Under the pieces are notes generated by a model. That model did no database searches and was not told the origin of the DNA. It saw nothing but the letters and a program-made list of their open reading frames with translations. DNA of 64,000 nt from Acidimicrobiaceae bacterium. GTDB taxonomy: Bacteria; Actinomycetota; Acidimicrobiia; Acidimicrobiales; UBA8592. The translations under genes and the position numbers were made by a program. Location: contig JAHECR010000006.1 in assembly GCA_024641655.1 (NCBI GenBank), positions 1 through 64,000 on the forward strand. The letters run 5' to 3'. Positions 3,904 to 11,389 of the stretch are shown here, one piece after another. The stretch's first letter is position 1. Each line of letters begins with the position of its first letter.

Positions 3904-5133
3904 TCAGGACTGGGGTGGGAGTGACGTGTGTGGGAACAGTTCGTGGAATGCGCCGATGCGGACGCGGTGGCTGGTCTGGGCGTCGACGTCGTCGAACAGT
4001 TCGTGCAGGGTCTTCTGGGTGTGTCCGAAGGTGCCTTCCCAGTGGGGGTAGTCCGAGCCCCACATGACGTTCTTCCAACCCATGGCCGAGCTGGCAAGGA
4101 CGGCTGAGGCGTCGTGTTGGAACGATGCGTAGACCTGTTCGTAGAGGTACTCGCTCGGGAGCTTCGACAGTGTCGGTCGTACGGCTGCGCCGTGTTGGCG
4201 GTAGCCCTCGTCCATGCGGTCAGCGATGAACGGGCCCCATGTTGCGCCGCCTTCGGACACCAGGATTTTGAGGTCGGGGTGGCGATCGAGGGCGCCGCTG
4301 GCGATCATCTGCATCACGGCGCGCTGGCCACCGAAGGTGGTCTCGGCGTAGTTCAAGACGGCTCCGCCTGGGCCGCGGTGGTAGACGCCTTGGCGCTGGG
4401 TCGGATCCCAGGGTTCGGTCCCGATGTGGAAGCCGAGCACCATCCCGGTTTCTTCGAGTGCGGCCCAGACCGGGTTCCATTCCTCGTACTGCCAGTCGCG
4501 CTTGACCCGCGGCGGTTTCACGGGGAAGAACCCCAGCGTGAATCCCATCTCGGCGCATCGCTTGATCTCCGCGACCGTGTCGTCGATGTCGAGCAGCGGG
4601 ATCGTGGCGGCGACGACGAAGCGGTCGGGGGCGATGTTTTGGGCTTCGAGGAAGAAGTCGTTGGAGGCTTGGGCGCCGATCTTGGCGATCTCGGGTGTTT
4701 GGATGTTGAACTGCCAGGTTCCCAGCGACGGGTAGATCGCTTCGGCCCAGATGCCTTCGCCGTCGAGGTCCGCGATCCGTTTCGTGGGATCCATCGCGCC
4801 TGGGGCGCGCTCCATCATGTTGCCGCTGTGGCCGTCGCGGTCGCCTTCTTTGGGCATGGGGAGGTTGCGGAGCTGGGGCCGGACCGGGCTGGCCGCGAGA
4901 TTCCCGGCGTTGCGTGCCGGTACACCGCCGGGCATCTCCTCGGGTGTCAGCGGCCTCGGGATCGGGCGCTCGAAGGTCTGACCGTCGACGGTGATGATCT
5001 CGATACCGCGGGCCTCGTCCTTCACCGACTTCGGCAGCCGGTCCTTCAGGTGATCGGGAAGGTCGGCGAACAGGTGCGGCGGCTCCATGTAGTGGGAATC
5101 ACCCGAATTGGCCCACAGCTTCGTCTCACTCAT
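3904..5133 (-). CDS. Amidohydrolase family metal-dependent hydrolase (Amidohydro_2 type)
   Basis: This 409-residue TIM-barrel hydrolase belongs to the amidohydrolase-2 / ACMSD-like superfamily of hydrolases and decarboxylases. The N-terminal metal motif reads SGDSHYMEPPHLF (D-x-H), a barrel histidine lies in VLGFHIGTEPWD, and the C-terminal WGSDYPHWEGTF supplies the conserved Asp. I placed the start at ATG 5133 because AGGAG lies 8 bases upstream; the frame runs on to 5214 but the added residues look non-coding. Two paralogues occur at 8730-10121 and 10121-11389, so the region is enriched in this fold. The substrate is unknown. Confidence 0.88.
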   Translation of the reverse strand: MSETKLWANSGDSHYMEPPHLFADLPDHLKDRLPKSVKDEARGIEIITVDGQTFERPIPRPLTPEEMPGGVPARNAGNLAASPVRPQLRNLPMPKEGDRDGHSGNMMERAPGAMDPTKRIADLDGEGIWAEAIYPSLGTWQFNIQTPEIAKIGAQASNDFFLEAQNIAPDRFVVAATIPLLDIDDTVAEIKRCAEMGFTLGFFPVKPPRVKRDWQYEEWNPVWAALEETGMVLGFHIGTEPWDPTQRQGVYHRGPGGAVLNYAETTFGGQRAVMQMIASGALDRHPDLKILVSEGGATWGPFIADRMDEGYRQHGAAVRPTLSKLPSEYLYEQVYASFQHDASAVLASSAMGWKNVMWGSDYPHWEGTFGHTQKTLHELFDDVDAQTSHRVRIGAFHELFPHTSLPPQS

Positions 5134-5308
5134 CGCGTTCTCCTGAGGTTTCGATGTCTTCGATCTGCGCGGGTTCAAGATAGTCTGCTCAGCAAAGCAT
5201 CTCAAGAGCTCCACCTGGAATGAGGTCCTCGTTGATCAGCCGATGGACCGCACCGAGCCAGAACTACCCTGAGCCGACACGAGCCCAAAGCCTGAAGGGC
5301 GCAAGACG

Positions 5309-5542
5309 ATGCCGCTTCGCCAAATAATTGTCGGGTCGACCCGCGAGACCCGCGCCGCGGACCTCGTTATTCCATGGGTGCGGCGCAGTGCCGAGAAGCA
5401 TGGGGGGTTCGAGGTCGAGGTCCTCGACCTGCGTGACTGGCCGTTGCCGATGTTCCAAGAGCACGCAGGCACGAGCAAGTCCCGGTTCATCGCGGCAAGA
5501 ATGCGACTTGCCCAGCGCGATGGCAGCGAGCGACCGCGGTGA
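5309..5542 (+). pseudogene. N-terminal fragment of an NAD(P)H-dependent FMN reductase
   Basis: About 55 residues from ATG 5309 match the start of the NADPH-dependent FMN reductase (flavodoxin-fold) family: QIIVGSTRETRAADLVIPWV, then GGFEVEVLDLRDWPLPMF. After FQEHAG the similarity ends, and the frame stops at 5542 after unrelated, arginine-rich residues. Complete family members are about 180-200 residues, so two thirds of the gene is missing. The break falls just before the selenocysteine-type redoxin gene, whose GTG start overlaps the fragment's stop, so a deletion or insertion joined the two. The fragment is unlikely to be functional. Confidence 0.7.
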
Positions 5543-6600
5543 TTCTCGATCGGCTCGAGATCGACGCCGAACGGTTCACCGAGGCGACGGGCTGGGTGAT
5601 CAAGCCCGATGGTGCGTGCAGAGGGGAGGTGTGCGTACCTCTGGGAGGCGCGTGGGGTGGACTGGTCGACGTTGCAGTCGTCGCCGAGCGCCTCGGGATG
5701 GGCCTGGTGCGCGACGATGAGCTGGCCCTGTGGGCACTCGGGCCAGAGTCACTGAGCGGACGCGGACTCAGCACTGCTGTGGCTCCCGAGCTCGTTCTGC
5801 CCGATCTCGTGTCGGGGACGGACTTCAGGTTGTCGACGCTGCGCGGTGAAAAGGTCGTCCTTGCCTGCTGGGCGCCGTATTGAGGCTGTCGGATGGATCT
5901 GCCAGGGTGGCAGGCACTGCGCAAGGAACTCAACACGCTGGGTGTCGAGATCGTCACGGTGGGCCTCGAAATGGCCGGGGAGGAGGTACTTCGTGGCTAC
6001 ATCGACGACGCGAAGGCCGAGCATCCCTCCCTGGTTGACTCGACACATCAGATGGACGTCTTGTTCGGGGTGACCAACATCCCAAGCGTTGTCTGGATAG
6101 ACGAGAACGGGATGATCGTGCGGCCGCCCCAGATCGGGATGCCCCCGCCCGTGCCACGTCCCGGTCCCGAAGGGACGCTTGCCCCGTACGGGGGAGCTGC
6201 TGCCTCTCCTGATCCCGAGTGGTATGCGAGGCGGCTCCGCGACTGGGCACACAATGGCTCGCGCAGCCGGTATGCCTTGGCTGCGGACGAGGTGATCGCG
6301 TTGTCGAAACCGCGGTCGCTCGACACTTCACGCGCTGCAGCGCACTTCGAGCTGGCGCAACACCTCTGGCGGCGGGAGGGCTTCACGAGCCGGACCTTCG
6401 CGCACTTCGATGCCGCACATGCTCTTCACCCCGAGAACATCACCTACAAGCGCCAGGCGTACTCGGCATACAGTTTCGGGCGAGGCGACGGAGATGAGCT
6501 CACCCGATTCGTCCAGGATCCGGGCGAAGGTCAGGAGTGGCCTTTCAGATCGAGCTACACACCGGACATGCGCCTTCTCCGAGCACACCTCGACCAATAG
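5539..6600 (+). CDS. Thioredoxin-fold redoxin with in-frame UGA at the redox motif; candidate selenoprotein
   Basis: One frame from GTG 5539 to TAG 6600 is interrupted only by TGA 5881-5883; decoding it as selenocysteine gives 353 residues. Residues 1-90 form an N-terminal domain (ATGWVIKPDGACRGEVCVPL). Residues 90-220 are a TlpA/redoxin thioredoxin fold: LPDLVSGTDFRLSTLRGEKV, then W-A-P-Y-U-G-C-R with the UGA at residue 115 and Cys at 117, and a cis-proline loop TNIPSVVWIDENG. The C-terminal 110 residues look helical and TPR-like. Relatives, as I recall them, carry C-G-C-R at this site, so UGA replaces the first redox Cys. A hairpin suitable as a bacterial SECIS follows. The alternative is a recent nonsense mutation; the clean downstream frame and the hairpin argue against it. 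Start codon support is weak. No selA, selB, selD or tRNA-Sec is in the window. Confidence 0.75.
5899..5913 (+). promoter_or_regulatory. Candidate bacterial SECIS hairpin
   Basis: CTGCCA (5899-5904) and TGGCAG (5908-5913) pair perfectly around a GGG loop (5905-5907). The loop begins 21 bases after the TGA at 5881-5883. From published bacterial SECIS models, the apical loop lies roughly 16-37 bases from the UGA and has a G among its first two bases; both hold here. The hairpin is inside the coding sequence, as in all bacterial SECIS elements. Confidence 0.6.
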
Positions 6601-8428: not shown

Positions 8429-8729
8429 CACGGACGGAGAGCGGTGGACCGCTTGTCTCACGACCAGCCGGTCTCGGTGATGGCCGAGTCTCGATCGGCT
8501 TCCCGGTCCGTGGAAGATCCCTCAGCTCGATCTCGATGAGCCCGAACCACGGCGTCAAGGAGCTTCGGCCCGGCCGCGGTGAAGTTGCCCGCCGTCGCCG
8601 CCCCCCTGGGCAACTGCCATGACCCGGTAGTCGGGGCGCCCTTCAGGGCCGGGGCTTGTTGGGGCGTTGTTGGCGCGTTAGTTTCACGGCGTGACCCGCG
8701 TCACGCGGATCCGGCGAGGGGTATTGGCT
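8429..8729. other. Intergenic stretch with no recognisable gene
   Basis: About 300 bases separate the methyltransferase from the next amidohydrolase. No frame shows family motifs. The last part carries GAGGGG, the ribosome binding site of the next gene. Confidence 0.4.
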
Positions 8730-10121
8730 ATGGACCGTTTGACCAAATCGTTCTCGGTTTTCGACTGTGACGCGCACATCAATGACCCTTTGGAGATCTG
8801 GGATCACGTTCCGGAGTCCAAGAAGGAGTTGGTGCGCAACACCTACTGGCGCGGCGACAGCGAGGCGTGGCTGAACGGCACGCAGCCGGTCATGGGCGGC
8901 GGCAACGGTCACTTCCCGGGCTACAACCCGATCTGCATTGCCGGGCCACAGATGAACAAGCGCATCATGCGCAAGCTCAACAGCATGCAGCTGACGCCTG
9001 AGCAGAAGGCCTACGTGCACCACGACGGTGCCATCGATCCGAAGGCACGCCTGATCGAAATGGATCTGATGGGAATCGACCAGGTGCTGGTCATCCCCAC
9101 GATGATGATCATGCATCTGCCGTTCGCCACCAACGTCGCGGGCGTCGCGGCGTTCTGCGAGGCCTACAACGATTTCCTGACCGCTTGGTGCGGGGAGGTG
9201 CCGGACCGGCTGTTCGGTGCGGCGATGCTGCCTATCCAGGACCCGCAGCTGGCAGCCACCGAGATTCATCGGGCCTCCGAGCTCGGTCATCGCGTCGGCC
9301 TGATACGGCCCATCGATGCCAACGCGCTCTATCCGAACGACGACGCACCGTCGCTGCTGTCGGGCGGAGGCCCCTTCGACGCCGTGTTCAAGGCGTTCGA
9401 GGACACGGGGATGGTGCTCGGGATGCACACCTTCCCCGCACCCAACTATGCCCATCCGCTCGGCAGCGACTACTTGGCTTCCCCCGGCGAGCTCTTCAGC
9501 CGCGCCCGGACCGATTCGCAGACGTTCTCGTTCATTCACGAGATGCAGGTGTGGATGGCGCAGGTTCTCATGACCGGATTTCTCGATCGGTACCCGAACC
9601 TGCGCATGGCCATCTTCGAGTCCAACGCGGAGTGGGTGCCCTACACCCTGGACACCTGCGATCGGTTGTTCAAGTTGTATGCCCGCGAGCGCGGAAACCT
9701 CAAGAACCGGCTGCCGTCGGAGGCGTTCTACGACCAGTGTGTCATCTCGTTCGAGTCCGACGAGGAGGGTGTGTTCGCTCAGCACGAGCAGTACGAGAAC
9801 ATCGGGATCTGGGCATCGGACGCCTATCACCACGACGGCGCCGACGTGTGGAGCGCGATGCGTCGCATGACCAGGGCAGGCGTGCCAGCGGGCGTACAGG
9901 AGAAGCTGTTGGGCGGGAATGCTCGTCGGTTCTATGGCATCGAACCCAAAGTGTTCGTCACCGAGGAGGCGCCGCCGATCGAACGGCCCGACTGGTTCCC
10001 CCAAGGTCCCGAGCTGGAGGCATGGGCGGACCTCGTCGCCCGACCACGCGAGAACGCCGAGGCTCTGGCAGCGATGCACTCCGACGCGACCGCCGCTTCC
10101 GGAGCAGGGGGGTCGTACTGA
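8730..10121 (+). CDS. Amidohydrolase family metal-dependent hydrolase
   Basis: This 463-residue protein is an amidohydrolase-2 TIM barrel with the N-terminal metal motif FDCDAHINDPLEIWD (D-x-H), a central VLGMHTFPAPNYAHP histidine, and the C-terminal IWASDAYHHDGADV carrying the conserved Asp. ATG 8730 has GGCGAGGGG upstream; the frame is open to 8691 but the extra residues are arginine-rich. The stop TGA overlaps the ATG of the next amidohydrolase, so the two are translationally coupled and may form a hetero-oligomer or act in sequence. The substrate is unknown; relatives include decarboxylases and hydrolases of aromatic acids. Confidence 0.88.
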   Translation: MDRLTKSFSVFDCDAHINDPLEIWDHVPESKKELVRNTYWRGDSEAWLNGTQPVMGGGNGHFPGYNPICIAGPQMNKRIMRKLNSMQLTPEQKAYVHHDGAIDPKARLIEMDLMGIDQVLVIPTMMIMHLPFATNVAGVAAFCEAYNDFLTAWCGEVPDRLFGAAMLPIQDPQLAATEIHRASELGHRVGLIRPIDANALYPNDDAPSLLSGGGPFDAVFKAFEDTGMVLGMHTFPAPNYAHPLGSDYLASPGELFSRARTDSQTFSFIHEMQVWMAQVLMTGFLDRYPNLRMAIFESNAEWVPYTLDTCDRLFKLYARERGNLKNRLPSEAFYDQCVISFESDEEGVFAQHEQYENIGIWASDAYHHDGADVWSAMRRMTRAGVPAGVQEKLLGGNARRFYGIEPKVFVTEEAPPIERPDWFPQGPELEAWADLVARPRENAEALAAMHSDATAASGAGGSY

Positions 10122-11389
10122 TGTCGGCGGTGGTCGACGTTGACGGGCACGTGTATGAGCCGACCGCGATCTGGGATCGCTACGTGCCCACCGAGCTGCG
10201 GGCGATGGCTCGCACCGCGTTCTTCCACGAGATCGACGACGAGGGAAACCGGCTCACGGTCCTCAACGGCCGCGCCGGGATCGACCTGAATCGGTCGCGT
10301 CTCGTGAGGCAGGCGATCTGGCGACCGGGGATGACCATCGACGACATCGGCGAGCTCGATCCCGATGTGTTCGTGCCGCTCAACCCCGGCGCATGGGACC
10401 CCGCGGCTCGGGTGGCCGACCTCGACGCGCTCGGGATCGATCTCCAGGTGGTCTACCCGACCCTGTTCAACGAGTACCTGCCGCTGGTGGAGAACCCCGA
10501 TGCCGCCGCGGTTCTGGCACGTGCCTACAACGACTGGATCTGGGACTTCGCCAAGGAATGCCGGGGCAGGGTCCACCCCGTCGCCATGATCGCGATGCAC
10601 TCGCCCCTCATCGCTCGCCGTGAGATCCAGCGTGTCGCCGAGCTCGGTTTCACCGCGGTGGTCATCCGGCCGGCGTTCTATCCTGCCACGATCCCTGAGC
10701 TCCACGACCCCGTCAGCCAGGCGCGTTCTGCAATGGCGCGGATGATGAGTGGCAGTGGCGGTTCCAGCCGGGTGTTCGTAGAGGACGTCCCGTACCGGGG
10801 TATCTGGCGCCTCCTCGAGGAGCTCGATCTCGTCACCTGCATCCACCCGAGTCTCGGAATCGCCGGAGCCGACGCGATCTCCAGCGGCGGGTTCGCGGAA
10901 CGCGTGTCAGCCCGCCTGGGTGCTCGACACACGATCGCCGAACCCATCGCCTACATGCAGGACGCCGATCTGTTCATGACCGCAGCGTTCTACCATGGGC
11001 TGCTCGAAGACCACCCGCGGTTGCGCTTGGCGATCGCACACGCGGGCTCGACGTGGATACCGCTGGTCCTGGAGAAGTGCGAAACTTACCTGTGGCTCGG
11101 TGGAGGACAGTTCGCCGATGTCGTGTCCCTCGAACCCGAGGAAGTATTCGAGCGCCACCCGATCCTGGTGAGCTTCGATGGTTGGGAGCAGCCGGTCGCG
11201 CGCATGCCCGGCCGCATCGGGACGAAGTCCGCGTGGGGATCGCGGTACCCCCATCACGATGCGAGCACCCCCGCAGAAGCGCGCCAGATGCTCGAAGCCC
11301 AAGGCGTCGACCCCGCCACGATCGACGCGATGATGGGCGAGCGCGCTATCGAGCTCTTCCGATTGAACGTGCCAGCGTCCAGCAAATGA
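10121..11389 (+). CDS. Amidohydrolase family metal-dependent hydrolase, coupled to the preceding paralogue
   Basis: The 422-residue protein starts with VDVDGHVYEPTAIWDRYVP (D-x-H metal motif) and ends with GSRYPHHDASTPAEARQML, the family's C-terminal Asp region with Asp changed to Arg (GSRYPH where relatives have GSDYPH). That substitution may alter metal binding. A histidine motif (CIHPSLGIAG) lies mid-barrel. Its ATG at 10121 overlaps the upstream TGA, with a GGAGCAGGGGGG ribosome binding site inside the upstream gene. It shares the fold with the neighbour but has clearly diverged. The two are probably co-expressed. Confidence 0.88.
   Translation: MSAVVDVDGHVYEPTAIWDRYVPTELRAMARTAFFHEIDDEGNRLTVLNGRAGIDLNRSRLVRQAIWRPGMTIDDIGELDPDVFVPLNPGAWDPAARVADLDALGIDLQVVYPTLFNEYLPLVENPDAAAVLARAYNDWIWDFAKECRGRVHPVAMIAMHSPLIARREIQRVAELGFTAVVIRPAFYPATIPELHDPVSQARSAMARMMSGSGGSSRVFVEDVPYRGIWRLLEELDLVTCIHPSLGIAGADAISSGGFAERVSARLGARHTIAEPIAYMQDADLFMTAAFYHGLLEDHPRLRLAIAHAGSTWIPLVLEKCETYLWLGGGQFADVVSLEPEEVFERHPILVSFDGWEQPVARMPGRIGTKSAWGSRYPHHDASTPAEARQMLEAQGVDPATIDAMMGERAIELFRLNVPASSK

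What the first reader, a model, noticed from the sequence alone, without database searches (positions are those of the whole stretch)
5539..6600. Candidate selenocysteine redoxin with U-G-C-R motif and SECIS-like hairpin
Two same-frame open stretches are separated by one TGA (5881-5883) that falls exactly on the first redox residue of a TlpA-like thioredoxin fold: W-A-P-Y-[UGA]-G-C-R. The frame continues for 238 codons with clear redoxin features. A 6-bp stem with a GGG loop lies 15-30 bases after the UGA, matching the geometry of bacterial SECIS elements. The domain order (N-terminal W-x-x-K-P-x-G-x-C domain, redoxin, helical tail) is not one of the commonly listed selenoprotein families that I can name.
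Basis: partly seen in the sequence, partly recalled or inferred. Interest (0 to 1): 0.88.

Follow-up and report, generated by a model that had tools for sequence, protein, structure and literature searches.

The report
Selenocysteine redoxin, known WAxxUGC family
The interrupted gene is a real selenium-containing redox protein in a bacterium that has the full selenocysteine machinery; it belongs to a family already catalogued by NCBI, so it is a solid but expected find whose cellular job is still unknown.

Summary
Observation confirmed. The in-frame TGA at 5881-5883 splits a 353-codon frame (GTG 5539 to stop 6598-6600). It sits where an oxidoreductase active-site Cys belongs: WAPY-U-G-C-R.

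Selenocysteine reading strongly supported. The same genome holds selA, selB, selD (itself with one TGA) and tRNA-Sec with anticodon TCA. Of 72 distinct homologous sites in relatives, 67 have TGA and 5 have Cys, with no other residue. A Cys-directed scan gave 83 Cys sites elsewhere. The hairpin after the UGA is intact in 66/67 UGA genes (synonymous-codon expectation 25.5, maximum 39 in 2000 shuffles) and keeps pairing through compensatory changes. Cys genes have it in 0/5 and 28/83.

The protein matches NCBIfam equivalog NF041054, 'ResA-like WAxxUGC motif-containing protein', at 390.6 bits (cut-off 300). UGC-containing Prx/TlpA-like selenoproteins have been in published lists since 2008.

Likely mechanism: a probably cytosolic ResA/TlpA-fold thiol-selenol oxidoreductase; U115 attacks and C117 resolves. 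An uncharacterised N-terminal domain has an invariant C-x4-C pair, and the tail is TPR-like. Substrate and electron donor are unknown.

The parts
5539..6600 (+). Selenoprotein CDS, 353 aa with Sec at residue 115; WAxxUGC redoxin (NF041054)
5881..5883 (+). UGA codon read as selenocysteine (U115), first residue of the U-G-C motif
   Evidence: only U or Cys at this place in homologues
5887..5889 (+). Cys117, proposed resolving partner in U-G-C
   Evidence: invariant in 151 of 151 homologues
5898..5914 (+). SECIS-type hairpin: 7-bp stem, GGG apical loop 5905-5907, loop starts 21 nt after the UGA
5539..5784 (+). N-terminal domain (residues 1-82), GW-x-x-KP-x-G-x-C-x4-C-V-P; no Pfam match and no fold match in the PDB
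5617..5634 (+). Invariant C27-x4-C32 pair of the N-terminal domain
5782..6180 (+). AhpC-TSA/redoxin (ResA/TlpA-type thioredoxin fold) domain, invariant cis-Pro position P182 at 6082-6084
6214..6597 (+). C-terminal helical, TPR-like tail
   Evidence: AlphaFold2 helices 226-352; weak TPR-type matches to designed TPR proteins

Best explanation
The gene encodes a member of the known WAxxUGC (NF041054) selenoprotein family. SelB and tRNA-Sec(UCA) decode UGA 5881-5883 as selenocysteine with help from the hairpin at 5898-5914 (shown by comparative evidence, not by experiment). The product is a ResA/TlpA-fold thiol-selenol oxidoreductase (fold shown by prediction). It is probably cytosolic, since no signal or membrane segment was found (inference). 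Sec115 replaces the nucleophilic Cys of the usual CxxC and attacks a disulfide or a peroxide-type substrate; Cys117, one residue shorter in spacing than CxxC, resolves the intermediate as a selenenylsulfide (inference from family chemistry). The invariant C27-x4-C32 pair in the N-terminal domain is the best candidate for a second redox pair or metal site that serves the active site (inference). The confidence given is for a functional selenoprotein of this family; for disulfide reductase as the activity it is about 0.6.
For: Machinery in the same genome: tRNA-Sec at C4:213-304, 63.5 bits and anticodon TCA; selB next to selA on C50; selD with one TGA. NF041054 hit of 390.6 bits against a cut-off of 300; all 68 aligned relatives match the model at E <= 1e-5. 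U or Cys only: 67 U and 5 Cys distinct sites, plus 83 Cys sites from a Cys-directed scan. Hairpin: 66/67 UGA genes against a synonymous-codon mean of 25.5 and maximum of 39; 0/5 and 28/83 in Cys genes. Compensatory pairs CG to UA and GC to CG; 7 cells changed on both sides against a shuffle mean of 0.5. selA in 54 of 59 genomes with the UGA form against 36 of 89 others. Fold: best PDB matches are ResA-type, TM 0.74-0.78 on the target side; AlphaFold2 mean pLDDT 93.7. At least 10 U/Cys changes on the tree.
Against: No experiment. The genome is an assembly of 121 contigs with 5.7% estimated contamination, and the Sec genes lie on other contigs than the window. Five relatives with the UGA form lack selA in their 67-83% complete assemblies. 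The single hairpin is not unusually stable. Relatives are not independent, so the shuffle figures overstate significance. No conserved neighbour gene points to a substrate.
Confidence: 0.95

Rival explanations
1. Pseudogene: a nonsense mutation in a Cys-type redoxin, with UGA acting as a stop.
For: UGA is a normal stop in the bacterial code, and stop-codon gene calling splits the gene into two ORFs.
Against: The same TGA is kept in 67 distinct homologous sites, including two further copies in this genome. The downstream 238 codons stay open and conserved, the machinery is present, and the hairpin tracks the UGA.
Confidence: 0.01
2. UGA is read as an ordinary amino acid (genome-wide code change or leaky readthrough) rather than as Sec.
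For: The frame continues after the TGA without a frameshift.
Against: tRNA-Sec, selA, selB and selD are all present; only Cys replaces the UGA in homologues; the hairpin is coupled to the UGA.
Confidence: 0.01
3. Function rival, same selenoprotein: a selenoperoxidase (peroxiredoxin-like) rather than a disulfide reductase, with U115 as peroxidatic and C117 as resolving residue.
For: Pfam AhpC-TSA and Redoxin match above their cut-offs; earlier lists call the UGC family 'Prx-like'.
Against: The best sequence and fold matches are ResA, DsbE and StoA; the motif W-A-x-x-U-G-C follows the ResA/TlpA W-A-x-x-C-x-x-C pattern and not the Prx T-x-x-C (seen in the sequence; interpretation from general knowledge).
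Confidence: 0.35

Closest known systems
NCBIfam NF041054 WAxxUGC_long, 'ResA-like WAxxUGC motif-containing protein'
   Same: Full-length match, 390.6 bits over a cut-off of 300, profile 1-328 of 354; same motif and same length.
   Different: Nothing essential; the last 26 model positions are not aligned.
UGC-containing Prx-like / TlpA disulfide reductase family selenoprotein (GOS survey 2008 and later reviews; PMC2398784, PMC9312934, PMC13188914)
   Same: Redoxin domain (pfam00578 / cd02966) with a UGC motif, Sec first.
   Different: Those papers give no sequences that could be compared here; PMC13188914 does not name NF041054, so identity with that entry is likely but not tested.
ResA / StoA / TlpA thiol-disulfide oxidoreductases
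   Same: Same fold (TM 0.74-0.78 on the ResA side over about 125 residues), W-A-x-x-nucleophile, cis-Pro position.
   Different: ResA is a membrane-anchored extracytoplasmic CxxC protein without Sec (general knowledge); here U-x-C, no signal or membrane segment found, an extra N-terminal domain and a TPR-like tail.

Membership tests
NCBIfam NF041054 WAxxUGC_long | Score above the curated cut-off of 300 bits | tested here: met
   390.6 bits
NCBIfam NF041054 WAxxUGC_long | WAxxUGC motif with UGA or Cys at U | tested here: met
   WAPYUGCR at residues 111-118
NCBIfam NF041054 WAxxUGC_long | Equivalog-level, near full-length match | tested here: met
   protein 1-328 to profile 1-328 of 354
Bacterial selenoprotein | Sec machinery (tRNA-Sec, SelA, SelB, SelD) in the genome | tested here: met
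Bacterial selenoprotein | SECIS hairpin just after the UGA, conserved and with compensatory changes | tested here: met
   no Rfam family matches it
Bacterial selenoprotein | Cys in place of Sec in homologues | tested here: met
Bacterial selenoprotein | Sec actually incorporated | not testable with these tools
   needs 75Se labelling or mass spectrometry
ResA (PRK03147, NF002854) | Score above the curated cut-off of 170 bits | tested here: not met
   48 bits: ResA-like fold, not a ResA
ResA (PRK03147, NF002854) | N-terminal membrane anchor | tested here: not met
   no hydrophobic N-terminal segment; highest 19-residue hydropathy mean 1.74 at residues 31-49, inside a folded domain
Peroxiredoxin | Peroxidase activity with a T-x-x-C/U active site | tested here: not met
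   the site is W-A-P-Y-U-G-C, no T-x-x-U; activity itself not testable here

The most novel reading that the evidence does not exclude
The N-terminal domain is an undescribed redox or metal module. Its invariant C-x4-C pair works with the U-G-C site, so that the family is a self-contained two-centre selenoenzyme with its own electron relay, or a metal(loid)-handling protein, rather than a plain ResA-like reductase.
Probability: 0.3. Interest if true: 0.5.

Novelty: new member of a known kind. Interest (0 to 1): 0.25.

Why it matters
It adds a well-supported, complete member to a selenoprotein family with no known function. It gives the family a comparative SECIS model (a fixed register tied to UGA and relaxed in Cys forms) and points to an invariant C-x4-C pair as the part to test. 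It also shows that ordinary stop-codon gene calling would cut this gene into two ORFs (5539-5883 and 5893-6600).

Tried and rejected
Single-sequence folding of the hairpin: no more stable than shuffles. Rfam search of the gene: no match. Conserved gene neighbourhood across 20 loci: the only widely shared clusters are the gene itself and its shadow frames. N-terminal domain alone: no Pfam family and no PDB fold match better than E = 2.2; the isolated model has mean pLDDT 78. Plasmid search: only redoxin-domain hits and a C-terminal fragment. Other same-frame TGA junctions with coding-like composition in the window (27570, 34593, 50919) were not followed beyond a short translation; two show a Met just after the junction and look like ordinary gene ends. 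Literature: no paper in the held library names NF041054.

Full report
Observation. The window has a GTG at 5539, a TGA at 5881-5883 and a stop at 6598-6600 in one frame. Read with TGA as Sec it gives 353 residues with U115 in W-A-P-Y-U-G-C-R. Codon-position base composition is alike before and after the TGA. Homologues start at the same residue, so the GTG start is right.

Genome. The window lies in an assembly of 3.9 Mb in 121 contigs, about 93% complete. The genome has a tRNA-Sec over the family cut-off, with anticodon TCA. selB and selA lie side by side on contig C50, and selD carries one TGA of its own. Order-level relatives appear to be Acidimicrobiia: contigs of G064 and G128 have the lengths of records titled Acidimicrobiia bacterium MGR_bin303 and Actinomycetota bacterium Bin_57_4. 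This placement is an inference.

Homologues. The genome has two further copies with the same TGA, 64% and 56% identical. Of 148 genomes searched, 95 have a match (many of the weak ones are plain redoxins), and the strong ones nearly all carry one TGA. Fetched and aligned, they give 72 distinct sites: 67 TGA and 5 Cys, nothing else. A scan of named genomes used a pattern with Cys at the site, so it is biased to Cys by design. It gave 83 Cys sites in Frankia, Nocardioides, Myxococcus, Patulibacter, Acidimicrobiia and others, up to 52% identical. On a FastTree tree of 151 sequences U and C change at least 10 times. selA is found in 54 of 59 genomes with the UGA form against 36 of 89 without it; the five exceptions are 67-83% complete. 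Of five genomes with only the Cys form, one has selA. These counts are not corrected for relatedness.

SECIS. In the window the hairpin is 5898-5904 paired with 5908-5914, loop GGG. One sequence alone is no more stable than its shuffles. In the family it sits at a fixed register over the codons L-P-x-W-Q: 66 of 67 UGA genes form all five register pairs, where synonymous recoding with each gene's local codon use gives a mean of 25.5 and a maximum of 39 in 2000 trials. Changes are compensated: CTG..CAG becomes TTG..CAA in four genes and CTC..GAG in two, the latter with Gln changed to Glu. Cys genes keep it in 0 of 5 and 28 of 83, against an expected 17; the small excess may be ancestry. The hairpin therefore follows the UGA and not the protein sequence. 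Its geometry fits the bacterial SECIS pattern known to me (short G-containing apical loop some 16-37 nt after the UGA; from memory).

Protein. The protein matches NCBIfam NF041054 at 390.6 bits, cut-off 300, and all 68 aligned relatives match that model. Pfam gives AhpC-TSA. AlphaFold2 gives mean pLDDT 93.7, and the redoxin part matches ResA, DsbE and StoA structures. The tail is helical with weak TPR-type matches. The N-terminal 82 residues match no Pfam family or PDB fold. Invariant residues over 151 sequences include U/C115, G116, C117, L121, W124, D167 and P182; C27 and C32 are Cys in every sequence that has the position. No membrane or signal segment was found, so the protein is probably cytosolic, unlike ResA.

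Mechanism. Shown by comparison: Sec coding and its RNA signal. Shown by prediction: a ResA-type fold. Inferred: U115 is the nucleophile and C117 the resolving residue, in a U-x-C in place of C-x-x-C. Also inferred: C27-x4-C32 is a second redox pair or metal site. Disulfide reductase is preferred over peroxidase on fold and motif grounds, but this is open.

Known status. The family is curated at NCBI. Prx-like or TlpA-like UGC selenoproteins are listed in the 2008 ocean survey (PMC2398784), a 2022 review (PMC9312934) and a 2026 review (PMC13188914). The 2026 review says that the functions of such Prx/Trx-like selenoproteins remain largely uncharacterised. The finding is a correct recognition of a new member, and the claim that it lies outside listed families is not supported.

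Noticed in passing
window 5309-5542 (+): A 77-residue ORF holding only the first half of an NADPH-dependent FMN reductase (PF03358, profile 5-71 of 152) overlaps the selenoprotein start by four bases (GTGA), as in translational coupling; it looks like a truncated gene.
   Followed up: partly
window 3907-5145 (-), 8691-10121 (+), about 10100-11389 (+): An Amidohydro_2 (PF04909) gene lies just upstream on the other strand; two more ORFs downstream look like the same superfamily by sequence, not tested.
   Followed up: partly
G000 C82:54406-55452 and C106:298881-299959: Two further UGA-containing paralogues in the same genome, 64% and 56% identical, each with the same hairpin register.
   Followed up: yes
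G000 C113:16858-17781 (L106): selD of this genome carries one in-frame TGA, as in Sec-containing SelD proteins.
   Followed up: no
L185 2001-2291 (Rhodococcus qingshengii plasmid pLP4); same in R. erythropolis NZ_CP044283.1: A short 'hypothetical protein' region is 46% identical to part of the C-terminal tail alone (residues 213-314), without the redoxin part; probably a remnant.
   Followed up: partly
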